Source of the DNA: an uncultured Bacteroidales bacterium | Lineage (GTDB): Bacteria; Bacteroidota; Bacteroidia; Bacteroidales; Lentimicrobiaceae | Direction: 5' to 3' | Assembly: GCA_937864935.1 (NCBI GenBank) | Contig: CALMDN010000302.1 | Coordinates: forward strand, 1-10,535 | Length of the DNA stretch: 10,535 bases | Part shown: in pieces, positions 1 to 10,535 of the stretch | Position numbering within the stretch: position 1 is the stretch's first letter | Layout: every line of letters begins with the position of its first letter | Notes under the pieces: generated by a model | The model's database searches: none | What the model saw: the letters and a program-made list of their open reading frames with translations, nothing else | What the model was told of the DNA's origin: nothing | Made by a program: the position numbers and the translations under genes

Positions 1-923
1 CCCAGGTAGTAACCTCCCCAGAACCCCCGGTTGTAAACCCGGTTAACCTCCGCTGTCCAGTCTTCAACATGATCTTTCGTGTATTGCTTCTTTTGCCAGG
101 CTTCCACGGCTTTGTGATAGGTCCGGGTCACGGTTTTCACATATTCTGCTGAGCGGCCCCGGCCTTCGATCTTCAGTACCGTCACCCCAGCATCCAGCAG
201 ACGGTCTAAAATCGGCAGCGTCATCAGGTCTTTGGGCGACATAATGTACTTGTTGTCAACCTCCAGCTCTATCTGGTTGTCGGCATCTTTCACCTGATAC
301 GCCCGCCGGCAGGGCTGCATGCAGGCTCCACGGTTGGCCGATGAGTTGAAATTATCGAGACTGATGTAGCATTTGCCACTCACCGCCATACAGAGGGCTC
401 CGTGTACAAAAACCTCTATCTGTACCAGCTTCCCTGATGGCCCGGTTATCTGTTGTTCGCTGATGGCCCTGGTTATGGCGGCAATCTGATCGATGTTCAG
501 CTCACGGGCCAGCACCATCACATCGGCATATCTTGAGTAAAATCTTACTGCTTCAATGTTGGTGATGTTGCACTGGGTAGAAATATGTATTTCAACGCCC
601 TTCGAAAGTGCATACTCCAGCACCGATAAATCGGAAGCGATGATGGCTGTAACGCCGCTTTCCTTTGCCAGATCCACCATTTCGCGCATGATGGGCAGTT
701 CCTCGTCGTAAATGATGGTGTTGAGGGTAAGATACGACCTCACGCCGTTTTCACGACAGATGCCGGTGATCTGCCGGATGTCGTCGGGCGAAAAATTGCT
801 CGATGACCGTGCCCGCATATTCAGCTGTCCGGCCCCGAAATACACTGAACCAGCCCCTCCCTGAATGGCCGCCATCAGGGAGTCGAAAGAACCTGCGGGG
901 GACATGATTTCTATTTCCTGCAT
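1..923 (-). CDS. Peptidase U32 family protein (partial, C-terminus off the left edge)
   Basis: The reading frame opens with MQEIEIMSPAG and is open for 307 codons to the window edge. The U32 signature is complete at about residues 170-188: E170, F172, G175, C178, G183, C185 and S188 in EVFVHGALC...GKC.IS. A second family landmark, KIEGRGR, starts at residue 251. Family members once called collagenase-like proteases include RlhA and TrhP, which take part in hydroxylation of 23S rRNA C2501 and tRNA U34 in E. coli; others are true or putative proteases. Conserved cysteines of the kind seen here fit the RNA-hydroxylation branch, but I cannot assign the substrate without the C-terminal part. The ATG at 921-923 was chosen because it gives the usual N-terminus just before the SPAG motif; an ATG six codons further in is possible. 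The gene stands alone, 218 bp downstream of queD, with a weak promoter box just upstream. Confidence 0.9.
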   Translation of the reverse strand, partial: MQEIEIMSPAGSFDSLMAAIQGGAGSVYFGAGQLNMRARSSSNFSPDDIRQITGICRENGVRSYLTLNTIIYDEELPIMREMVDLAKESGVTAIIASDLSVLEYALSKGVEIHISTQCNITNIEAVRFYSRYADVMVLARELNIDQIAAITRAISEQQITGPSGKLVQIEVFVHGALCMAVSGKCYISLDNFNSSANRGACMQPCRRAYQVKDADNQIELEVDNKYIMSPKDLMTLPILDRLLDAGVTVLKIEGRGRSAEYVKTVTRTYHKAVEAWQKKQYTKDHVEDWTAEVNRVYNRGFWGGYYL

Positions 924-944
924 GTTTTGCTGTAAAAGTCTGGA

Positions 945-952
945 CAAAGTTA
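945..952 (-). promoter_or_regulatory. Candidate Bacteroidota -7 promoter box for the U32 gene
   Basis: On the minus strand the sequence reads TAACTTTG, a match to the Bacteroidota -7 consensus TAnnTTTG, 21 bp before the U32 ATG. No convincing TTG -33 element is visible at the expected distance. The remaining intergenic DNA up to 1141 holds no gene or strong terminator that I can see. Confidence 0.4.
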
Positions 953-1141
953 CATTTTATTCACGAATCAGAACGGCTATCCGGGTGTGTCAGAGTTTCA
1001 AATGTCTGATAAACAAAATGATATGATGTCATTGTATTTATTTCAATATTCAGAGGTCCTGACTGTTCAGCTGTTTCAGGGTCAATCCAGAGTGGATCTG
1101 CTCAACCGGTAAAGGCAAAAAGAGAAAGGGAACACAGGAAT

Positions 1142-1591
1142 TTACTCATTGTCGGTTGCATGCCATTCGGCAAACGAAGTCACCGTTTCGCGCAGCATCA
1201 GGCTGTGGAGTTTTACCCCGGCAGGCAGCTCCTTTTTCAGTCGAAGCGCAAAATCGGCCAGCAGGTTTTCGCTGGTTGGCTGATAATCTGTAAGGATCAG
1301 TCTCCCCACAAATTCTCCGAGCTCAGCTATCTGAAGCGGTGCTGTTGCCTTGTTGAGTACCAGGGCGTGATCAAATTCACCAATGATCTGTTGCCTGACA
1401 ATTTCCTTCAGTTGCCTGAAGTCCATGACCATACCGCAAAAAGGCGAAGCAGCATCCGTTATCGGGCTGCCTGCAACAGTTACATGCAACTCGTATGAAT
1501 GGCCGTGAATGTGCCTGCAGGGCCCGGAATAGCCGGCCAGGGCGTGGGCCATTTCGAACTTAAATTCCTTGGTGAGTCTGATGACAGCCAT
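1142..1591 (-). CDS. queD: 6-carboxy-5,6,7,8-tetrahydropterin synthase (QueD / PTPS family)
   Basis: This 149-residue protein belongs to the 6-pyruvoyl-tetrahydropterin synthase fold and most likely converts 7,8-dihydroneopterin triphosphate to 6-carboxytetrahydropterin, an early step of the queuosine tRNA-modification pathway. The expected zinc ligands are present: H16 (FEMAH) and H29/H31 in CRHIHGH. C25 in the same motif is the expected catalytic cysteine. Other landmarks are VMDF at 55-58, FDHALVLN with D74/H75 at 73-80, PTSEN at 105-109, and E135 in LRET, which anchors the pterin. Length is normal for bacterial QueD. The ATG at 1589-1591 lies 6 bp after the stop of the nuclease gene, so it is probably translated from the same mRNA. 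No other queuosine gene lies in the window. A eukaryotic-type PTPS role is less likely because of the C-x3-HGH spacing. Confidence 0.93.
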   Translation of the reverse strand: MAVIRLTKEFKFEMAHALAGYSGPCRHIHGHSYELHVTVAGSPITDAASPFCGMVMDFRQLKEIVRQQIIGEFDHALVLNKATAPLQIAELGEFVGRLILTDYQPTSENLLADFALRLKKELPAGVKLHSLMLRETVTSFAEWHATDNE

Positions 1592-1597
1592 GCCAGG

Positions 1598-2659
1598 TTA
1601 TTTTACCAGCCTGATAAATGAAGGCAATTTTCCGGATTCGCTGATCTCAATTAAGTAGAAGCCACTGTTCAGTGCTGAGGTATTGATGCGCAACGCCCCT
1701 GCTTCATCTGTAAAATCCGTAACATACTGCCTGCCGGTAATATCATAGAACCGCAGGCTAAGACTGGTGTTTCTGTAGTAATTATGATGATTGATGATGC
1801 AGTAATCGCTGGCCGGGTTCGGGTAAACGGTAACGTCTGTATTGTAAACAAGTTCGTTTACAGCAGTTGTTCCTCCCCAGATCTGGGCAATAAATTCAGG
1901 ATGATCAATATAGGGGTTCCGGTTGTTCTGAATCTCATACACTGCGTTGTTCCGGTCAATTTCCTTCTGACTTACCGGATCGCTCAGATGCCATTCTTTG
2001 AGTAATGCGAGTGCCCAGGGCCTGGGCTGTGAGCCGTTTACCATGTCGCTGCCGGGCCATCCATTGTCTTCGTTGTAATACCTTGTTGCCATGTAGAAAT
2101 AGGTTCTGGCAAAATCGCCCTTGTAGGCATCAATTGGTTCAAACACAGTTCCTGAGTAACCCGGGAAATTGCAGTTTCCAAGTTTACACCCATTCTCAGA
2201 AGTCCAGGAAGCTGAACCTACGGTTCCGTAAGGATAGTTGCTTCGGCGTCCGTTCACATATCCATCGGTGGGATAAAGATGAAACAGATCGGAGTACATC
2301 GGACTCATGTCATCAAACCAGCTTTTCGGGAATGAATGTTCCCGGTTGTAACAATCACCTTCACCGTTGTATGAGCCGCACTGATCGCCTGATGTAAAAT
2401 TGAAAACGTAGGGTGGATTTCCACCCGGTACATCAGAATACATATCCCATACCGTCCCGTTGGGTTTGCGGTCGGTCGATTCAAAATGCTCATGCAGCGA
2501 GTTGTAACTTTGCACATAGTGGTTGTCGATGATGTTGTGCAGGGCTGCCTGAAGGGCAGTGCCACTGAGGCCATTGGCTGCATCATAGTAGCCGGCAGGA
2601 GGTTGTGATTTTACACTAACAGTGAAGGTGAAGAGGGCAAGAACGATTAGTCTTTTCAT
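1598..2659 (-). CDS. Secreted endonuclease I family nuclease with type IX secretion C-terminal domain
   Basis: The 353-residue product starts with a signal peptide (MKRLIVLALFTFTVSVKS, likely cleaved before Q19). It continues with the endonuclease I (EndA/NucM-like) catalytic domain: REHSFPKSWF at 106-115 with the probable catalytic H108, then SDLFHLYPTDGYVNGRRSN at about 123-141, and the family hallmark NRNPYIDHPEF at about 246-256. These enzymes are metal-dependent, non-specific DNA/RNA endonucleases acting outside the cytoplasm. A linker leads to a Por secretion tail beginning VTVYPNPASDY at about 276 and ending GFYLIEI...FIRLVK, a sorting signal for the type IX secretion system. The open frame extends upstream to 2737, but that part overlaps the preceding gene and lacks signal-peptide character, so the ATG at 2657-2659 is preferred. 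It sits 7 bp after the MntP-like gene and 6 bp before queD. It probably scavenges nucleic acid; a surface-anchored form is also possible. Confidence 0.92.
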   Translation of the reverse strand: MKRLIVLALFTFTVSVKSQPPAGYYDAANGLSGTALQAALHNIIDNHYVQSYNSLHEHFESTDRKPNGTVWDMYSDVPGGNPPYVFNFTSGDQCGSYNGEGDCYNREHSFPKSWFDDMSPMYSDLFHLYPTDGYVNGRRSNYPYGTVGSASWTSENGCKLGNCNFPGYSGTVFEPIDAYKGDFARTYFYMATRYYNEDNGWPGSDMVNGSQPRPWALALLKEWHLSDPVSQKEIDRNNAVYEIQNNRNPYIDHPEFIAQIWGGTTAVNELVYNTDVTVYPNPASDYCIINHHNYYRNTSLSLRFYDITGRQYVTDFTDEAGALRINTSALNSGFYLIEISESGKLPSFIRLVK

Positions 2660-2666
2660 CAGTAAA

Positions 2667-3227
2667 TCAAATGATATGTAAAACAAGGTGAATAACGCCA
2701 AAACACACAACAACAATGCCTGACAACAATCCGGCATATTTTATTGAAGGTTTAAAACCGTAATGTTCTCCGGCTTTTACTCCGGCAATTACAAGGAACA
2801 ATGTTGCAAAAAATGCCGAAAACACTGGTAACAGCAACGGCCCGCCGGCTGTTCCTATGGCCAGCCCGGTAAGGAAAGCTCCAATGCCACCGGCCGCAGA
2901 CAGCAGCAAAGCTGTGGTGATGTTGTCAATCAATATCACTTTCTCATCAACGTTATAGTTGATAGAATCAAGAGCTGATTTAATTCCGACAATAACAAGC
3001 AACGACATGGCAGAAGGGAAACTGTACTGGCCGAGGGTGTGCTGCATGAGCATTCCAAGCAGAATTCCTCCAAGCATCAGCATCGCCCGTCCTGATGCCA
3101 GAAACAGCGCGGTAAACGCCTGCATTTTCATTGCAAGCTTCTTGTGCAATGCGGCTGCATACCATGATGTTGTTAAAACATCAAAGGCAATAACAGCACC
3201 GATAACTGCAAATTCAATTTCTGACAA
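2667..3227 (-). CDS. MntP-like (DUF204 type) membrane protein, putative cation exporter
   Basis: This is a 186-residue, highly hydrophobic protein with about six predicted membrane segments (roughly 5-27, 38-63, 72-88, 104-126, 132-151 and 165-185). The segments form two three-helix halves joined by a short charged loop near 92-101. The layout and motifs resemble the MntP manganese efflux family: AFDVLTTS at 14-21 matches the family's first-half Asp helix, TTALLLSA at 104-111 starts the second half, and GLLSGIVVVCFGVIH at 166-180 resembles the final helix. The Asp normally found in the second half appears to be missing, so transport of Mn2+ is uncertain. The start is TTG at 3225-3227, since no ATG or GTG is available upstream in frame; a promoter box lies 20 bp upstream. 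It is the first gene of the run leading to the nuclease and queD. Family assignment is from pattern recall only. Confidence 0.6.
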   Translation of the reverse strand: MSEIEFAVIGAVIAFDVLTTSWYAAALHKKLAMKMQAFTALFLASGRAMLMLGGILLGMLMQHTLGQYSFPSAMSLLVIVGIKSALDSINYNVDEKVILIDNITTALLLSAAGGIGAFLTGLAIGTAGGPLLLPVFSAFFATLFLVIAGVKAGEHYGFKPSIKYAGLLSGIVVVCFGVIHLVLHII

Positions 3228-3247
3228 GGTCGTGAATTTTGAGCCTG

Positions 3248-3255
3248 CAAAAGTA
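3248..3255 (-). promoter_or_regulatory. Candidate -7 promoter box for the mntP-like / nuclease / queD run
   Basis: The minus strand reads TACTTTTG, matching TAnnTTTG, 20 bp before the TTG start of the MntP-like gene. It is the 3' end of a 14-nt sequence that occurs again in opposite orientation before pyk. No clear -33 TTG is seen at the usual spacing. Confidence 0.5.
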
Positions 3256-3381
3256 GTGAATAAATGAACTTCACCTGTTGATTTTCAATCAGATTTGTTC
3301 ATGTCGGTCAGACTACCCATATTTTTTCTTCCTGTTGGATCCGGTTAGCCACAATTAACATATGCACAACATCCGATTCAC

Positions 3382-3389
3382 TACTTTTG
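3382..3389 (+). promoter_or_regulatory. Candidate -7 promoter box for pyruvate kinase
   Basis: TACTTTTG matches the Bacteroidota -7 consensus TAnnTTTG and lies 19 bp before the pyk ATG. This would give a very short leader. The upstream arm lacks an obvious TTG -33 element, so the call rests on the -7 match, the position and the mirrored copy before the divergent gene. Confidence 0.5.
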
Positions 3390-3408
3390 TATTAAAATCA
3401 ACTGAATT

Positions 3409-4827
3409 ATGAGGAAAACGAAAATTGTTGCCACTGTTGGTCCGGCTTCATCGTCCGAGGAGATGCTCCGAAACCTGATGCTGGCCGGGGTAAATGTTTT
3501 CAGGCTGAATTTTTCGCATGGGGTGCACGGAGACCATGCGGTCACAGCAGAGAGAATCAGTCGTCTCAATCAGACTCTGGGGCATCACGTTGCTGTTCTG
3601 GCCGACCTGTCAGGTCCGAAAATCCGTACCGGCGCAGCTGGCAGCGGGCTTACCCTTGTGCCGGGTGAAACCTGTGTGATCACCAACAGAAACGAAGAAT
3701 GCACTGGAAACGTCATCAGTGTGAACTATAAGGATTTTGCCCTGGATGTAAAGACCGACGATGATATCCTGCTGGATGACGGCAAACTGCTGCTGAAAGC
3801 CATTTCTTCGAACGAAAAGGATGAAGTGGTGGCTAAGGTAATCCAGGGAGGGATACTGCTGTCGCACAAAGGTGTGAATCTTCCGAAAACCAGGTTGCGA
3901 CTGCCGGGGCTTTCAGAAAAGGACCTTAACGACCTGCGTTTCATCGCAACCCTCAACGTTCAGTGGGTTGCCCTCTCCTTTGTCAGGTCAGCGTCAGATA
4001 TTACCGATCTGAGGAACAGGCTGCATGAGCTTTGCGGGAACAATGCTCCAAGGATTATCGCGAAGATTGAAAAGCCCGAAGCCGTTGAAAACGCTGAGGC
4101 CATCATAGAAGCCGCCGATGCCTTGATGGTCGCCAGGGGCGATCTGGGTGTTGAAATCCCCCAGGAACAGGTGCCTGTTATTCAGAAGAGACTGGTGAGG
4201 TTGTGTCTGGCGGCTTCAAAACCCATTATCGTGGCTACACAGATGATGGAAGGGATGATCTCTAACCTGCGTCCGACCAGGGCAGAGGTAAGTGATGTTG
4301 CCAACTCGGTGATTGATGGAGCCGATGCCCTGATGCTCAGTGGCGAAACATCGGTTGGCAGTTATCCTGTTCAGACGGTTGAAACCATGAACAGAATCAT
4401 CTGTGATGTGGAAGCCAGCGACATTCAGCTACCGGTGGTTGAGCCGGTCGAAAGTCCCGGCGAACGGAGAATTTCCGATTCTGTAATCATGGCAGCCTGC
4501 GACCTGGCACAAAAAGTGAATGCCCGTGCCCTCATTGCCATGACCCACACTGGTTACTCTGCGTTCCGCCTGGCGGGCCACCGAACCAAAGCCGGAATCT
4601 TTATTTTTTCCGACAACCGTAACCTCCTTCGTGCCCTGAACCTGGTATGGGGTGTTACAGGCATTTATTTTGAGCAATTTTCCAGTACCGACTCTGCCAT
4701 GATGGAGATGCGTAAGACCTTGGTTGCCAGAGGATACATTACTACAGGAAACTATCTTATCTATGTTTCGAGCATCCCGATGGGTAAGCCCGGAAAAACG
4801 AACATGCTGAAGCTGAGTATTGTATAA
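3409..4827 (+). CDS. pyk: Pyruvate kinase
   Basis: Pyruvate kinase transfers phosphate from phosphoenolpyruvate to ADP, the last step of glycolysis, in the cytoplasm. The 472-residue protein has the expected length and all main landmarks: TKIVATVGPAS at 4-14, FRLNFSHG at 31-38 with the substrate-binding R32, LSGPKIRTG with the K+/phosphate-binding segment, and the B-domain starting around residue 70. Then come IIAKIEKPEA with catalytic K219 and metal ligand E221, MVARGDLGVEIP with metal ligand D245, ATQMMEGMI, and RPTRAEVSDVANSV...DALMLSGET. The C-terminal domain follows (about 345-472). ATG 3409-3411 directly precedes the conserved KTKIVATVGP, so the start is firm. It is transcribed alone on the plus strand, diverges from the MntP-like gene, and converges on comF with only 2 bp between stops. 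The sequence does not show which allosteric effector it uses. Confidence 0.97.
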   Translation: MRKTKIVATVGPASSSEEMLRNLMLAGVNVFRLNFSHGVHGDHAVTAERISRLNQTLGHHVAVLADLSGPKIRTGAAGSGLTLVPGETCVITNRNEECTGNVISVNYKDFALDVKTDDDILLDDGKLLLKAISSNEKDEVVAKVIQGGILLSHKGVNLPKTRLRLPGLSEKDLNDLRFIATLNVQWVALSFVRSASDITDLRNRLHELCGNNAPRIIAKIEKPEAVENAEAIIEAADALMVARGDLGVEIPQEQVPVIQKRLVRLCLAASKPIIVATQMMEGMISNLRPTRAEVSDVANSVIDGADALMLSGETSVGSYPVQTVETMNRIICDVEASDIQLPVVEPVESPGERRISDSVIMAACDLAQKVNARALIAMTHTGYSAFRLAGHRTKAGIFIFSDNRNLLRALNLVWGVTGIYFEQFSSTDSAMMEMRKTLVARGYITTGNYLIYVSSIPMGKPGKTNMLKLSIV

Positions 4828-4829
4828 GC

Positions 4830-5525
4830 CTATTTCACGGCACAGGCAATTGAAGCAACGCTGATTCTGATTCCGGGAATCTTCAACAGCTCCTGTCCTG
4901 CGGCTTCAAGCGTGGATCCGGTGGTAATCACATCATCGACCAGCAAGACGTGTCTGCCGGCCTGTCGGCCGATATCGGTAACCCTGAATATTTCTTTTAC
5001 ATTCTCCCAACGGTTGAACCTCGATTTTTTCGTCTGGGTTTCCGATGCAGTAGCTCTGATCAGGCTGCTGGTGTCAAGGTCAATGTGCATTGCACCGGAC
5101 AGACCCCTGGCAAACCATTCAGCCTGGTTGTAACCCCTGCGTGCCTGCTTCCTGGGGTGCAATGGCACCGGTATCACTGCTGAAACACTGTTAAACAGTG
5201 GCGAATTCATCAGTTCCTTTCCATACAGCATCCCTACGTGTGAACCTATTTCCTTGTACCCCTTATACTTAAGCTGGTGAACCAGGTGCTGAACCTTGCT
5301 CCCTTTCGAAAAATAGTAAAACGAAGCAGCGGAAGCAAAATTTATTTTTCCCCAGAATTGCCGGGCAACCGGGTTATCAGTTTCCAGATGAAAACCTGTT
5401 CTAGGCAGGGCATGAACACAGGCAAAGCAGATCACCTCTTCGTTTTTGAAGAGCGGGTTTCCGCAGGCAAGGCAGAACCTGGGGAAAAACAGGGAAACTA
5501 CATTCTCTGTCAGCTGTCGTATCAT
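4830..5525 (-). CDS. comF: ComF family phosphoribosyltransferase-like protein
   Basis: This 231-residue protein has the ComF/GntX architecture. An N-terminal zinc finger carries C18, C21, C33 and C36 (FCLACGNP...VICFAC). A central segment has the typical PVPLHPRKQARRGYNQAEWFARGL, followed by a TQTKKSRFNRWENV stretch. The type I PRTase PRPP-binding loop, VLLVDDVITTGST, is at about 193-205. ComF proteins are needed for DNA uptake in transformable bacteria and are linked to PriA helicase and single-strand handling, but are also conserved in bacteria not known to be competent. An upstream ATG at 5622-5624 is open in frame, but that extension would be encoded by the terminator of the preceding gene (MIKKPSSSGW is read off the stem), so the ATG at 5523-5525 just before the zinc finger is used. 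The stop lies 2 bp from the pyk stop, with no terminator between. No competence gene is adjacent. Confidence 0.9.
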   Translation of the reverse strand: MIRQLTENVVSLFFPRFCLACGNPLFKNEEVICFACVHALPRTGFHLETDNPVARQFWGKINFASAASFYYFSKGSKVQHLVHQLKYKGYKEIGSHVGMLYGKELMNSPLFNSVSAVIPVPLHPRKQARRGYNQAEWFARGLSGAMHIDLDTSSLIRATASETQTKKSRFNRWENVKEIFRVTDIGRQAGRHVLLVDDVITTGSTLEAAGQELLKIPGIRISVASIACAVK

Positions 5526-5584
5526 CGGTGGCAGATTCTCACATAAAAATAGTGAAAACTTCGTGTTTCCCGATAGCTGGAAAT

Positions 5585-5619
5585 AAAAAAAAAGCCACCC
5601 TGACGAGGATGGCTTTTTT
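5585..5619 (-). terminator. Rho-independent terminator of the ppiD-like gene
   Basis: Read on the minus strand, six A, GCCATCC, loop TCGTCA, GGGTGGC, then nine T. The stem is GCCAUCC/GGGUGGC with one G-U wobble, extended by A-U pairs, and is followed by an uninterrupted T run. In plus-strand RNA the wobble becomes a C-A mismatch, so the element favours minus-strand transcripts. It begins 16 bp after the stop at 5635. Confidence 0.85.
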
Positions 5620-5634
5620 ATCATTTATATTGCT

Positions 5635-7761
5635 TTAGTAATAGAGCAGCCGGTTGTCTTCGATATCGGCATTGCGTTTCAGGGCTTCAGCCGGTTCGCG
5701 CTGTGCGCGGGTGCGGAAGGCATTGGTGAGCATCCTCTTCTCAGGAGTCAGGTCGTCTTTTGCAGGAGCCGGTATGATCTGGTCAGCAACAAGGAGGAAA
5801 ACAGCCTGATTGCCTTTTACAGGTTTCGACATCTGTCCGGCTTTGAGTGTAAACAGAATACCAATGGCATCGTCTTCCTTTCCGTAACCCGGAAGGTTGG
5901 AATTGGCAAATGATACTTCACTGGTGTCGGCTTTCATGCCTAGGTTGATGTAACCTTTATCGAGATCGGCCAGTGATTTAACGGTCTTGTTTACTTCAGC
6001 AATGATCTTCTCGGCTTTCTTATCACGCTTTACCAGTGGTTCGATGAATTCTTTCAGTTGCTCAAGGCTTGGGATACCTTTTTCCCTGATTTCCTTGAGG
6101 GTAGCAATCATGTAACGGCCTTCAAGGTCGAAAACCTGTGAAATGCTGCCTTTTTCGGTATCCTTGTTAAAGGCCCAGATAACGATCTGCCTGCCTTCAG
6201 GGATTCCGGGAAGTGAATTCTGATCCATGCCGATACGTTCAGCACTGCGTTTGGTAAGCTTTTTCTCTTCAATCAGCTTGTTGAATCCTTCCATGTTTTT
6301 GGCTTGTGAGGCAAATTCACTGGCTTGGGTATAGACATCCTGCATGGTTTTGGAACTGGGCTCACTTTTAATTTTAACCATTGCAACCCTGACCTTCTTT
6401 GAAGGAGCTGTTTTACCGGTGATTTTAATGATATGGAAACCAAACTGGGTTTCTACCAGGGTAATGTCGCCGATTTTACCATTGAGTACTGCTGAATTGA
6501 ATTCAGGAACCATGGCGCCATCGGCAAACCAGTTAAGATCACCTTTCGATTTGGCAGCAGTCTGATCATCGTTGATGGTGGATGCCAGTTCATCGAATTT
6601 GGCAGCGGAGGTTTTCACAACTTTCAAAACACTGTCGGCCTTCGCTTTTGCCTGTTCCTTGGTAAGTTTGGTGTCGGGATTCACATTGGTGCCCTTGTAG
6701 GAAATCAGTATATGACTTGCTTTCAGAGAGTCAGGACGGGTCTGTACATCAACAAGCCGGGCCATCTGATAAATGTCATTTTCAATAAACGGACCAAAGG
6801 CAGTTCCGACAGGTGCATTGAACATCAAGGAATCAATCTGGTAAGGCAGTTTGCCTCTCTTAATCCAGGTGCTGTCGTACCGTTCATCGGAAGTGGTGTT
6901 CACAAAGGTTACCACATTCTCGGTAGTGGTAAATTCTTTGTAGATCTCCTGAACTTCACGGTTGATCTTTTCACGGTCTTCGTTTGAAGGAAGAATGTCG
7001 AAAGTAACATATTCAATATCGCGGGAAGCTTCCTGCTGATATTTGTGTTTGTTTTCATTGTAGAATTTCTCATAGTCAGCATCGGTCAGCGTAACAAGGC
7101 TGTCGGCAATGCTGGTGTATGGCGCACCATAATAGCGGGCCTTAACCTTTGTGTTGCGGGCTTCATAGTCGCGTTTGGCAAAAGCCTTGGGGACATAAAA
7201 ACCTTTGGCAATCAGGTTGCGGTATTTGGTGTTGAGCCTGTCTTCCTTGATGGCTTTTTCAATCATCAGATAGCGCTCTTTCATCTGGGGGTCAACCTGA
7301 TCAAGGTTCTGAAGAAAATTAACTACGGTTGCCGGGTCAAATTGACCGGTCTGCGGATCACGGAAACTCTGAACAATATAACTGTGAGGATTTTTACCCC
7401 TGATCTGGTCATCAAGTTCTTCGGTGGTAACGGTGAGTCCCAGTCTGGAAACCTCTTCCAGCAACAGGGTTTCATTCAGTACCTGATCCCAGGTCTGTTG
7501 CCTGATCTGAAACTGCTCGTCAGAAGTGAGGTTTTCCTTGCCTGTATTCAGCTTCTGAGCTTCCATATTGTCTTCCACCCGCTGGTTAAAGTCGGTTGCC
7601 AGTATCTTTTCACCGTTTATTTCTGCGATAACATTGTCACCTCTGCCACCCCTGGGGCTGCGGTTTGATAATAAGTCACCCAGTACAAAAGCAGCAAGAG
7701 CAACACCAATGATGATGACAAGAAGCCCTGAACGTTTACGAATATCTCCGATTAATGCCAT
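5635..7761 (-). CDS. ppiD: PpiD/SurA-type membrane-anchored peptidyl-prolyl cis-trans isomerase
   Basis: The 708-residue protein is a parvulin-type foldase that helps exported proteins fold in the periplasm. An N-terminal cytoplasmic stub (MALIGDIRKRSG) leads to one membrane anchor at about residues 13-31 (LLVIIIGVALAAFVLGDLL). A SurA-like N-terminal chaperone region follows (INGEKILATDFNQRVEDN, about 48-65 onward). One parvulin (PPIC) domain sits at about 345-450, recognised by KASHILIS with H350, then GDLNWFADGAMVPEFNSAV and TQFGFHIIKITG. The C-terminal 250 residues hold a further helical chaperone-like region. An in-frame ATG ten codons upstream (7789-7791) lies on top of the promoter box, so the ATG at 7759-7761 is preferred; it matches the usual start of Bacteroidota PpiD. 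It follows the CNNM-CBS gene, but the terminator between them and its own -7 box suggest separate transcription. Confidence 0.93.
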   Translation of the reverse strand: MALIGDIRKRSGLLVIIIGVALAAFVLGDLLSNRSPRGGRGDNVIAEINGEKILATDFNQRVEDNMEAQKLNTGKENLTSDEQFQIRQQTWDQVLNETLLLEEVSRLGLTVTTEELDDQIRGKNPHSYIVQSFRDPQTGQFDPATVVNFLQNLDQVDPQMKERYLMIEKAIKEDRLNTKYRNLIAKGFYVPKAFAKRDYEARNTKVKARYYGAPYTSIADSLVTLTDADYEKFYNENKHKYQQEASRDIEYVTFDILPSNEDREKINREVQEIYKEFTTTENVVTFVNTTSDERYDSTWIKRGKLPYQIDSLMFNAPVGTAFGPFIENDIYQMARLVDVQTRPDSLKASHILISYKGTNVNPDTKLTKEQAKAKADSVLKVVKTSAAKFDELASTINDDQTAAKSKGDLNWFADGAMVPEFNSAVLNGKIGDITLVETQFGFHIIKITGKTAPSKKVRVAMVKIKSEPSSKTMQDVYTQASEFASQAKNMEGFNKLIEEKKLTKRSAERIGMDQNSLPGIPEGRQIVIWAFNKDTEKGSISQVFDLEGRYMIATLKEIREKGIPSLEQLKEFIEPLVKRDKKAEKIIAEVNKTVKSLADLDKGYINLGMKADTSEVSFANSNLPGYGKEDDAIGILFTLKAGQMSKPVKGNQAVFLLVADQIIPAPAKDDLTPEKRMLTNAFRTRAQREPAEALKRNADIEDNRLLYY

Positions 7762-7788
7762 TTTAATTAGATTTTTTATAAGAGGGTG

Positions 7789-7796
7789 CAAATTTA
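7789..7796 (-). promoter_or_regulatory. Candidate -7 promoter box for the ppiD-like gene
   Basis: The minus strand reads TAAATTTG, matching TAnnTTTG, 27 bp before the ATG at 7759-7761. It overlaps the alternative upstream ATG at 7789-7791, which argues against that start. No clear -33 TTG is seen at normal spacing. Confidence 0.5.
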
Positions 7797-7820
7797 CAAT
7801 AAAACTGATAGTATAAAAAT

Positions 7821-7846
7821 AAAATTGGCCAATTCAGGCCAATTTT
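7821..7846 (-). terminator. Intrinsic terminator after the CNNM-CBS gene
   Basis: A perfect 10-bp inverted repeat, AAAATTGGCC and GGCCAATTTT, flanks a 6-nt loop. On the minus strand it is followed by ATTTTTAT, a T-rich tail. It lies about 60 bp after the stop at 7906 and before the ppiD promoter box. A smaller hairpin (TCCGG / CCGGA, 7855-7871) sits just upstream of it on the transcript. Confidence 0.75.
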
Positions 7847-7905
7847 CACCTATATCCGGCAAATAACCGGAATTCGTAAACCCTTTAAGTCAACAATTTA
7901 GCAAA

Positions 7906-9174
7906 TCAGGAGGGATTCAGCCTGAGCAGAACCTGTTCAATCCGTGTATCGGTGGCCTGGAGTATGGTAAAATGGAAGCCTTCAATCACGATTTCATCAT
8001 TGGCCGACGGGATACTCTGATGATGATGAATGATATAACCGGCCAGAGTTTCATAGTCATCCGTCTTCTGAAGATTCAAAGCGTACTTTTCGTTGAGAAA
8101 ATCAATTTCAAGTCTGCCTGAAAACAGGTATTCATCCTCACTGATTTTCTGATCTACCTGTTCTTCAACATCAAATTCATCGTTTATCTCCCCGAAAATC
8201 TCTTCAATAACATCTTCAATGGTCAGCATTCCTGCGGTTCCCCCGAATTCATCAACAACAATCGCCACGCTTTTTCTTTCTGCAATGAACTGATTCAGCA
8301 ACTTGTTGGCTGGCATGGTTTCTGGGACGATCATTACCGGCTTGATTATTTCACTGATCGACGCTGGTTTCCTGAACAGATCGTACAAATGGGCATAACC
8401 GATGATGTTGTCGACGGAGTGCTGAAAAACCGGGATTTTTGAATGACCGGTTTCAACAAAGAAATTGCGAAGATTTTCAATGGATTCGGAGGCGTCGATT
8501 GCAAGAATTTCATTGCGGGGAACCATACATTCCCTCAGCTTAATGTTATTCAGGTCCCTGACATTCTGAAACATCTGTATCTCCTGCATCTCTTCCCGTT
8601 CATCGGGTTGAAGGACTGCAGATTCAAGCAGGTAATAATCCAGATCAGTGGTGCTGAAGGTATAGTTCGGGCGGGTTATACGTATACGAAAGACAAGCCT
8701 GAGAATCAATTCCGACAATCCGATAAACAACAGCACAAGCGGATAGATGAGAATGTAGATTATAAATACGGGAATTGAAAAGAAAGTAAGGGTTTTGTTG
8801 GGGTTTATCCTGAAAAGGACTTTCGGCAAAAATTCTGCCAGTACCAGAATAACCAGCGTTGAAAGAATGGTCTGTATAATCAGCAACAAAGCTTCCGACC
8901 CGGGGCCATCGGGAAGAATCTGCTTAAGAGGTTCATTCAACAACCTTACAGAATAAATCCCGTAAATAACAAGAGCTATGTTATTGCCCAGAAGCATTGC
9001 AGCAATAAAATGGGATTGCTTCCTCAAAAAAAGTGATAGGATTCTGGCTTGAAGCTGATCTTTGCTTTTGTCAACCTCAATTTTCAATTTATTGGACGAA
9101 ACGAAGGCAATCTCCAATCCCGAAAAAAGCGCGGAAAACAAAAGGGTAATCGCTATGGGAACGATCAGCTGCAT
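7906..9174 (-). CDS. CNNM-CBS-CorC family membrane protein (GldE/hemolysin type)
   Basis: The 422-residue protein has the CNNM/CorC layout. An N-terminal DUF21/CNNM membrane domain spans about residues 1-165, with segments near 1-22, 56-78, 96-122 and 131-158, including the small-residue motif SGLEIAFVSSNKLKIE. A pair of CBS domains follows at about 215-335, beginning ECMVPRNEILAI and ending with the hallmark VVDEFGGTAGMLTIEDVIEEIFGEI. A CorC/HlyC C-terminal domain (about 345-420) closes it. Relatives are magnesium or cobalt exporters, and in gliding Bacteroidota the homologue GldE is needed for motility together with GldD; most annotations call them hemolysin-like. The sequence does not decide between these. 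A GTG lies directly before the ATG at 9172-9174; the ATG is preferred. Position between lptC and ppiD is a common gene order in this phylum as I recall it. Confidence 0.9.
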   Translation of the reverse strand: MQLIVPIAITLLFSALFSGLEIAFVSSNKLKIEVDKSKDQLQARILSLFLRKQSHFIAAMLLGNNIALVIYGIYSVRLLNEPLKQILPDGPGSEALLLIIQTILSTLVILVLAEFLPKVLFRINPNKTLTFFSIPVFIIYILIYPLVLLFIGLSELILRLVFRIRITRPNYTFSTTDLDYYLLESAVLQPDEREEMQEIQMFQNVRDLNNIKLRECMVPRNEILAIDASESIENLRNFFVETGHSKIPVFQHSVDNIIGYAHLYDLFRKPASISEIIKPVMIVPETMPANKLLNQFIAERKSVAIVVDEFGGTAGMLTIEDVIEEIFGEINDEFDVEEQVDQKISEDEYLFSGRLEIDFLNEKYALNLQKTDDYETLAGYIIHHHQSIPSANDEIVIEGFHFTILQATDTRIEQVLLRLNPS

Positions 9175-9225
9175 CACTGTTAAAAATCAGAATATCTCAA
9201 CGGATGTATTTGTTTAATCCTGGTG

Positions 9226-9233
9226 CAAAGATA
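9226..9233 (-). promoter_or_regulatory. Candidate -7 promoter box for the CNNM-CBS gene
   Basis: TATCTTTG on the minus strand matches TAnnTTTG, 51 bp before the ATG at 9172-9174 and 24 bp downstream of the lptC stop. It suggests the CNNM-CBS gene can be transcribed independently of lptC. No matching -33 TTG is evident. Confidence 0.45.
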
Positions 9234-9257
9234 TGGAAATGGGTTAAATCCTTCAGC

Positions 9258-9809
9258 TTACGGATTGTCATTCACATACATTTCACCCCTGGGCTTTTTA
9301 ATTGTCCAGCGTTCAAACCGCTCATCGGAAACCAGCCCTTCACCGTAAATGATCTTGTCGGGCGTTGTTATTGTTACAAATTTATCAGAATAAACCTTGC
9401 GTGTATTTTTATCCCAGATTAATTCTTCGGTATTGAGTTTTTCCCCTTTCAGCTGATTGATCACAACAACGTTCGACCGGGCCTCCATTCTCCGTTTCCC
9501 TTCGTTGTCCATGCCATACTCAGCGGTTATCTGTGTTCTGATTTTATCGGGGTTGAGTGAATCGAAGAAGACCACTTTAAAGCCTTCCGGAAAGATTGTG
9601 TTGGCTCCTTTCCCTTCTGATTCAAATCGTTTAAGCAGGCTGGCGGTCAGTTTATATTTGGTAATACCCGATTCACTTTCTGAAATGGAAACATCACGGG
9701 CAAACATCGTTGGCGTGGTATCCTGCTGGTTGAGACGGTTTACCTCTTCCATCTCGTTGTTACAACTCAAAAGCGTTGCCGTCAGAACGACAGCAACGCT
9801 TTTAAGCAT
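9258..9809 (-). CDS. lptC: LPS export protein LptC (lipoprotein type)
   Basis: LptC is the inner-membrane-attached periplasmic bridge that passes LPS from the LptB2FG transporter to LptA. The product from ATG 9807-9809 is 183 residues. It begins with a lipoprotein signal, [16 protein letters not shown], with lipobox LLSC and the acylated cysteine at 16, as is usual in Bacteroidota. The body shows family motifs: [61 protein letters not shown] and [21 protein letters not shown] at 9843-9845 would add 12 residues and also gives a plausible leader. Upstream of that, the same open frame continues into a truncated era gene (see the pseudogene entry), so the native upstream region appears to be lost and no TAnnTTTG box is visible directly before this start. 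Transcription may come from the era promoter. Confidence 0.88.
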
Positions 9810-9851
9810 CACGAACAAATGACTGGAATAATTCAACGGTTTCACCCTGTC

Positions 9852-9965
9852 TGCTTTCGGGGTGATGATGGAGATATTCTCGCCAGTCAGGGCGTTCATC
9901 AGCGTCGATTTCCCGACATTGGGCTTCCCGATGATATTGACAAAGCCGGCTTGGTGTTTGGTCAT
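9852..9965 (-). pseudogene. era: Truncated 5' end of era GTPase, fused in frame to the lptC leader
   Basis: From the ATG at 9963-9965 the frame encodes 38 residues that match the start of the Era GTPase, a 16S rRNA-binding ribosome assembly factor. [18 protein letters not shown] carries the G1 P-loop (G13-T21), followed by [18 protein letters not shown] full Era is near 300 residues and would continue QTTRHRI with the switch I threonine. Here the match stops after K37-A38 and the frame runs directly through [13 protein letters not shown] into LptC with no stop codon, giving a 235-residue chimeric open frame (9258-9965). The fragment lacks G2-G5 and the KH domain, so it cannot be an active GTPase. 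It keeps what looks like its own promoter. A real deletion or recombination, or an assembly join, would both explain it. Confidence 0.85.
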
Positions 9966-9983
9966 TGGTTGTTGGTTGCTGGT

Positions 9984-10004
9984 CCTGAGGGCGAAGCCCG
10001 AAGG
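9984..10004. repeat. Small imperfect palindrome in the era leader, REP-like candidate
   Basis: CCT GA GGGC GAA GCCC GA AGG folds into a GGGC/GCCC stem with a 3-nt loop, an internal GA/GA mismatch pair and a closing CCT/AGG stem. Next to it, at 9965-9978, is a tandem TTGGTTG pair. It has no T run, so it is not a terminator. Whether it repeats elsewhere in the genome cannot be seen from this window. Confidence 0.4.
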
Positions 10005-10024
10005 ATCTTATTTTTTGTATTTTA

Positions 10025-10032
10025 CAAAAGTA
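10025..10032 (-). promoter_or_regulatory. Candidate -7 promoter box for the era fragment
   Basis: TACTTTTG on the minus strand, identical to the boxes before pyk and the MntP-like gene, lies 59 bp before the era ATG and 71 bp after the stop of the transporter gene. In the present arrangement it would drive the era-lptC fusion frame. Confidence 0.45.
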
Positions 10033-10103
10033 GCTTATTAATGAATTGAAATACGGAACTTTCTAAAAGGGTCGCCATTCCACCGGAGAAAAGGCCAAAA
10101 TGA

Positions 10104-10535
10104 TTATACTGCCAGCTTGAGAATTCTGAACGCACCGCGGGCCACAATGATAAACACGACCGACCCGATGACCAGGTCGGGGTACCCGGAGCCGAGCCAG
10201 TGAACGAGAAACCCGGCCAGGATCACTCCGGCATTGATGATGACATCATTGGAGGTGAAGATCATGCTGGCGCGCATGTGGATCTCCCTGCTCCTGCTTT
10301 TTTGCAGCAGGTAAAGGCAGGCGATGTTGGCCACGAGCGCCAGGGCCGAAACGAGGATCATCGTCCTGAAGTCAGGCATCAATGCCATGCCGGCAAACCG
10401 CCGGATGACCTCTGCAAATCCGATGAGGGCCAGCACAAGCTGGAAAAAACCTGCAATCCGGGCGACTCTTTTCTTGAATGCCAGGGCCCCGCCGACAGCC
10501 AGCAGGGCAAGCCCGTAGACGTATGCGTCGGCTAG
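10104..10535 (-). CDS. CDF-like cation transporter (partial, N-terminus off the right edge)
   Basis: The open frame enters at the window edge and gives 143 residues. The visible part resembles the membrane domain of cation diffusion facilitators: LADAYVYGLALLAVGGAL (second membrane segment), GFFQLVLALIGFAEVIRRF (third), MILVSALALVANIACLYLL (fourth), HMRASMIFTSNDVIINAGVILAGFLV (fifth) and YPDLVIGSVVFIIVARGAFRIL (sixth), then the stop. The cytoplasmic C-terminal domain of typical CDF proteins is absent. Only one Asp of each usual metal pair remains (LAD in the second segment, SND in the fifth); the partners are replaced by Tyr and Phe by my alignment, so the substrate is unclear. A GTG at 10434-10436 is internal and not the start. 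Its GC content is about 60-63% in three counted 60-bp rows, against 43% in an lptC row. Confidence 0.8.
   Translation of the reverse strand, partial: LADAYVYGLALLAVGGALAFKKRVARIAGFFQLVLALIGFAEVIRRFAGMALMPDFRTMILVSALALVANIACLYLLQKSRSREIHMRASMIFTSNDVIINAGVILAGFLVHWLGSGYPDLVIGSVVFIIVARGAFRILKLAV

What the first reader, a model, noticed from the sequence alone, without database searches (positions are those of the whole stretch)
9809..9965. In-frame era-lptC junction: a decapitated era gene feeding into LptC
Seen directly: one uninterrupted frame encodes the first 38 residues of Era, including a perfect P-loop, and then a complete lipoprotein LptC. Known: Era is about 300 residues and LptC starts with a signal peptide, so neither family naturally has this fusion. 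Inference: a deletion or recombination joined the two near 9845-9852. If real, lptC is now driven by the era promoter and either starts internally or makes a protein whose lipoprotein signal sits 50 residues inside. If not real, it is an assembly chimera in the data set. Either answer matters to anyone using this contig.
Basis: partly seen in the sequence, partly recalled or inferred. Interest (0 to 1): 0.7.

Follow-up and report, generated by a model that had tools for sequence, protein, structure and literature searches.

The report
Chimeric contig joining two bacterial species
The apparent fusion of two genes is almost certainly an assembly error in which about 700 bases of another bacterial species were stuck onto the end of a contig, so it is ordinary and serves mainly as a warning to users of this genome.

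Summary
The reading frame is real in the letters: minus strand 9965-9258 encodes 38 Era residues with a P-loop, then LptC from its native residue 3. But the halves come from different organisms. Window 1-923 and 1141-9851 match one contig of same-genus genome G011 at 86-88%. Bases 9853-10535 match, unbroken at 96%, the cation-transporter/era locus of G172, another family of the order. The era start is 102/105 identical to G172 but 71-84 of 105 to 14 same-genus era genes. In those 14, era lies beside a divergent der; in 14 same-genus lptC loci a TPR-like gene precedes lptC. Across 19 genomes of the family, no match but the window's own crosses 9851/9852 by more than 4 bases; none of 120 listed homologues holds both parts. 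The foreign piece, 684 bases, ends with the contig of a 589-contig, 72.5%-complete MAG. Best explanation: a cross-species chimeric contig end. Reads were not available, so a very recent real transfer is not excluded (about 5%). Trim 9852-10535.

The parts
1..9851 (.). Native part of the contig (genus of G011): U32 peptidase, 6-pyruvoyl-tetrahydropterin-synthase family, endonuclease I with Por tail, Mntp family, pyruvate kinase (name recalled, not scanned), ComF-like, PpiD/SurA-like isomerase, CNNM family, lptC
   Evidence: 1-923 at 86% and 1141-9851 at 87.8% to one G011 contig, same order; families (the ComF, isomerase and GldE NCBIfam matches are below their curated cut-offs)
9258..9851 (-). 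lptC from its native third codon to the stop
   Evidence: TIGR04409 79.9 bits, PF06835 53.6 bits; native start seen in P0001 and G011
9851..9852 (.). Chimeric junction
   Evidence: G011 match ends at 9851; G172 match begins at 9853, or 9848 with a 2-base gap
9852..9965 (-). First 38 codons of a foreign (G172-like) era gene, with P-loop
   Evidence: Residues 1-38 100% identical to the Era frame of L063, the record that appears to be G172; DNA from codon 4 on 102/105 to G172
9981..10007 (.). 27-base palindrome-like dispersed repeat in the foreign stretch
   Evidence: Up to 3 mismatches: 6 copies in G172, 1 in G000 (this one), 0 in each of four same-genus genomes
10104..10535 (-). Foreign cation-diffusion-facilitator-like gene, cut by the contig end
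   Evidence: TIGR01297 40.9 bits, below cut-off 82.35, and no Pfam match for the cut piece; part of the 96% match to G172, where the whole gene passes PF01545 and precedes era

Best explanation
The contig is a chimera of two species. Its first 9851 bases are from the organism of the bin. Its last 684 bases are the cation-transporter/era region of a species close to G172, of another family in the same order. The most likely cause is a false join at a contig end (a chimeric read or pair, or a wrong extension by the assembler). The fused frame is then an accident, and no Era-LptC protein and no era-driven lptC exist. Shown: the two origins and the sharp border. Inferred: that the join arose in library or assembly and not in a cell.
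For: Left part collinear with G011 up to 9851. Right part 96% to G172 over 9853-10535, contiguous there as transporter-era-der. The era start is 102/105 to G172 against 71-84 of 105 to 14 same-genus genomes, and those 14 proteins share residues that the window lacks. G000's contig C355, holding the second half of der, is 87% to G011, so a native era piece should look like that, but the window's is 76% over the 96 bases that match. In 14 of 14 same-genus era loci examined der diverges from era, and in 14 of 14 lptC loci examined a TPR-like gene lies upstream (14 of 18 same-genus relatives each, different sets). In the 19 genomes of the family no match but the window's own crosses the border by more than 4 bases. 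Of the 120 proteins listed, 99 match only the LptC part, 21 only the Era part, 0 both. The foreign tail ends with the contig. A dispersed repeat with 6 copies in G172 occurs in G000 only here and in none of four genus members.
Against: No reads or coverage were available, so artefact against transfer was not tested directly. G172 and G011, which are relatives and not the parents themselves, share no long word at the join: the longest exact word in about 200 bases of each is 6 bases, away from the join; at the join I count 4 shared bases in the printed sequences. So it does not look like the classic repeat-driven misjoin of a k-mer assembler. 56,001 bases of G172 (about 1.6% of it) found no other near-identical stretch in G000 (best 75%, apart from a 44-base piece at 84%), so contamination by that species was not seen elsewhere in the bin. 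One paper calls misassemblies relatively rare beside mis-binning (PMC8201837, passages).
Confidence: 0.93

Rival explanations
1. Real, very recent horizontal transfer: a piece of a G172-like genome integrated just upstream of lptC by a join without homology, and the fused frame is expressed or lptC starts internally.
For: The border is sharp and no long shared word was found there, as illegitimate recombination would give. The 56,001 bases of G172 searched are otherwise absent from G000, so bulk contamination was not seen.
Against: It would part lptC from the upstream gene that 14 of 14 examined relatives keep, leave an era stub and end by chance with the contig. None of the 18 other genomes of the family has it. 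The two frames scanned on the stretch, the era piece and the transporter, are not mobile-element genes.
Confidence: 0.05
2. Rearrangement inside one genome: a deletion or inversion joined this organism's own era to its own lptC.
For: The open frame across the join; no complete era found in the bin.
Against: The era piece is not the genus's own (68-80% identity); what precedes it is the transporter seen in G172, not der; the missing era is explained by C355 starting inside der.
Confidence: 0.01
3. A genuine Era-LptC fusion protein family.
For: None beyond the frame itself.
Against: 0 of 120 listed homologues match both parts (7760 of 8000 scored passed, the rest are not listed); 0 of 3 loci from the genome collection cover both; the 24-base junction word has no match in viral contigs and, among 101 loci held, occurs in 8, all cut from this contig.
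Confidence: 0.005

Closest known systems
Chimeric contig (interspecies misassembly) in metagenome-assembled genomes
   Same: Two stretches of different taxonomic origin on one contig, sharp border, at a contig end, in a fragmented bin
   Different: No long shared word seen at the border, so a chimeric read or wrong end extension is likelier than a repeat-driven join (inference)
GTPase Era (NF000908 / TIGR00436)
   Same: First 38 residues with the P-loop
   Different: The rest of the protein is absent; far below family cut-offs
LptC (TIGR04409 / PF06835)
   Same: Nearly the whole profile, over cut-off; a Cys after a hydrophobic stretch as in a lipoprotein (read by eye)
   Different: First two native residues replaced by the Era piece

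Membership tests
Interspecies chimeric contig | The two sides have best relatives in different lineages | tested here: met
   G011 (same genus) for the left, G172 (another family) for the right
Interspecies chimeric contig | Each side continues differently in its own lineage | tested here: met
   TPR-like gene upstream of lptC in 14 of 14 loci examined; full era then der in G172
Interspecies chimeric contig | Coverage break or lack of spanning reads at the border | not testable with these tools
   No reads held
Era GTPase | Full-length match over the family cut-off | tested here: not met
   50.7 bits against 237, residues 5-39 only; TIGR00436 37.1 against 116.25
LptC | Profile match over cut-off | tested here: met
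   79.9 against 38 bits; PF06835 53.6 against 21
LptC | N-terminal membrane or lipoprotein signal at the protein's start | tested here: inconclusive
   By eye the hydrophobic stretch lies about 50 residues inside the listed frame, and near the start in P0001 and G011; no signal prediction was run and an internal start is not excluded
Horizontally acquired insertion | Foreign stretch flanked on both sides by host sequence | tested here: inconclusive
   Only one flank exists; the contig ends at 10535

The most novel reading that the evidence does not exclude
A very recent inter-family transfer placed a transporter-era fragment directly upstream of lptC in this strain, giving an Era-headed LptC or a new promoter for lptC.
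Probability: 0.05. Interest if true: 0.3.

Novelty: not a real feature. Interest (0 to 1): 0.05.

Why it matters
It matters as a data-quality case: a clean-looking in-frame fusion of two housekeeping genes, with an intact motif, arises from a 684-base foreign tail. Anyone using this contig for gene fusions, operon structure or era presence/absence would be misled. Trimming at 9851 removes the problem.

Tried and rejected
Left-end chimera: window 1-1140 has no match in the first G011 stretch fetched, so a second join was suspected; 1-923 matches the same G011 contig at 86% on the far side of about 8 kb that is extra in G011, so it was rejected.

C355 as the missing era: its hit to the Era profile starts at contig base 3, but it is the second half of der (the name der is recalled from the sequence, no family scan). 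Of the 10 Era-profile hits (none over the cut-off; in the 14 control genomes 10 were over it) one is the window; C355, C537, C432 and C6 were read, and the last three look like MnmE, a HydF-like and an HflX-like GTPase (names recalled). The other five, weaker hits were not read.

General contamination by the G172 species: 56,001 bases of G172 in three stretches gave no other near-identical place in G000; a fourth stretch, L089, was fetched but used only for the repeat scan.

The missing upstream part of the lptC operon was sought in G000: besides 61 bases of lptC itself, only two overlapping stretches on C239 matched (141 bases at 100%, 43 bases at 88%), repeat-like sequence.

Microhomology: no shared word longer than 6 bases between G172 and G011 near the join.

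Full report
What is in the sequence. The minus-strand frame 9965-9258 is open for 235 codons. Residues 5-39 match Era profiles and 56-223 match LptC. The window is a whole contig (C302, 10,535 bases) of a fragmented bin: 3.0 Mb, 589 contigs, completeness 72.5, contamination 3.32.

Where the two halves come from. In 41 genomes (own plus 40 relatives) searched with 9200-10535, 28 had a match, own included, and 13 had none. Apart from the window's own, the listed rows lie on one side of the border or the other: lptC-side rows end at or before 9851, and rows of the other side start at or after 9848 (one, of G014, at 9848; the rest at 9852 or later). The best left relative, G011, is collinear with the window from 1141 to 9851 at 87.8%, and matches 1-923 at 86% on the same contig. 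The best right relative, found in 393 genomes drawn from the order (161 with a match, own included; 232 without), is G172, of another family: 96% over 9853-10535, or over 9848-10535 with 2 gap positions. In the corresponding record the transporter gene, era and der follow each other on one strand.

The era piece is not native. Its start (105 bases) is 102/105 identical to G172, 84 and 87 of 105 to two further families (G020, G103), and 71 to 84 of 105 to 14 same-genus genomes. G000's contig C355, with the second half of der, is 87% identical to G011, as native genes are. C355 begins inside der, so the native era, which in relatives lies just beyond, seems simply to be missing from the assembly; one search found no era over the cut-off. 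In 14 of 14 same-genus era loci examined (14 of 18 relatives; G005-G008 gave no era-start row that I could use and were not examined) era and der diverge, and no G172-type transporter was hit in the fetched stretch; in 14 of 14 lptC loci examined (14 of 18; G006, G007, G008, G010 not examined) the TPR-like gene ends just upstream of lptC. That gene's TPR_2 score, 24.8 bits, is below the cut-off of 27, hence TPR-like.

The fusion was found nowhere else. In the family (19 genomes held, own included; 16 with a match, 3 without) no match but the window's own crosses the border, save 4 bases of the G014 era row. The protein search scored 8000 candidates, 7760 passed, 120 were listed; of these 120, 99 match only the LptC part, 21 only the Era part, none both. 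The nearest LptC, P0001, is 199 residues, 98% identical over 83% of the query, and begins with the two residues that the window lacks; its row shows no source, so its contig could not be read. In the genome collection 3 loci were found, two with only the LptC part and one with only the Era part; records of the window's own genome may be left out there. The 24-base junction word has no exact match in viral contigs and, among 101 loci held, occurs in 8, all cut from this contig.

A further marker. The foreign stretch holds a 27-base palindrome-like repeat (9981-10007). With up to 3 mismatches it occurs 6 times in G172, once in G063 (same genus as G172), 0 times in G265 (same family), 2 and 8 times in G092 and G286 of another family, 0 times in G011, G009, G017 and G001, and once in G000, namely here; the backward control pattern gave 0 in all 10 genomes.

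Artefact or transfer. The foreign part is 684 bases long, ends with the contig, has no flank on the other side and cuts two genes. That is what a false join at a contig end gives. One benchmark counts 22.15 chimeric contigs per genome for megahit and 2.63 for SPAdes with Illumina reads (PMC11261854, passages read); another paper calls misassemblies relatively rare compared with mis-binning (PMC8201837, passages read). Both came from one search listing of 10 of 15 papers. Against the artefact, no long shared word sits at the join, no other G172-like sequence was seen in the bin in the 56,001 bases searched, and reads were not available. I therefore leave about 5% for a recent real transfer.

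Conclusion. Trim the contig at 9851. No Era-LptC fusion and no promoter swap should be inferred from it.

Noticed in passing
window 9981-10007: Dispersed 27-base palindrome-like repeat with several copies in G172 and in another family (G092, G286) and one weaker copy in G063; it looks like an extragenic palindromic repeat shared across families of the order.
   Followed up: partly
L100 (G011:C51:148300-156700): About 8 kb present in G011 but not in the window between the U32 peptidase and the pterin-synthase-family gene; its frames look like a type III restriction-modification pair and an ATPase/STAS-like/PIN-like set (names recalled from the sequences, no family scan).
   Followed up: partly
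L101 (G000:C239:683-823): 141 bases 100% identical to the end of G011 contig C51, although the stretches compared are otherwise about 88% alike, with a 20-base inverted repeat at 768-810: perhaps a mobile or repeated element at a contig end.
   Followed up: partly
window 1598-2737: Endonuclease I family protein with a Por secretion-system C-terminal sorting domain.
   Followed up: no
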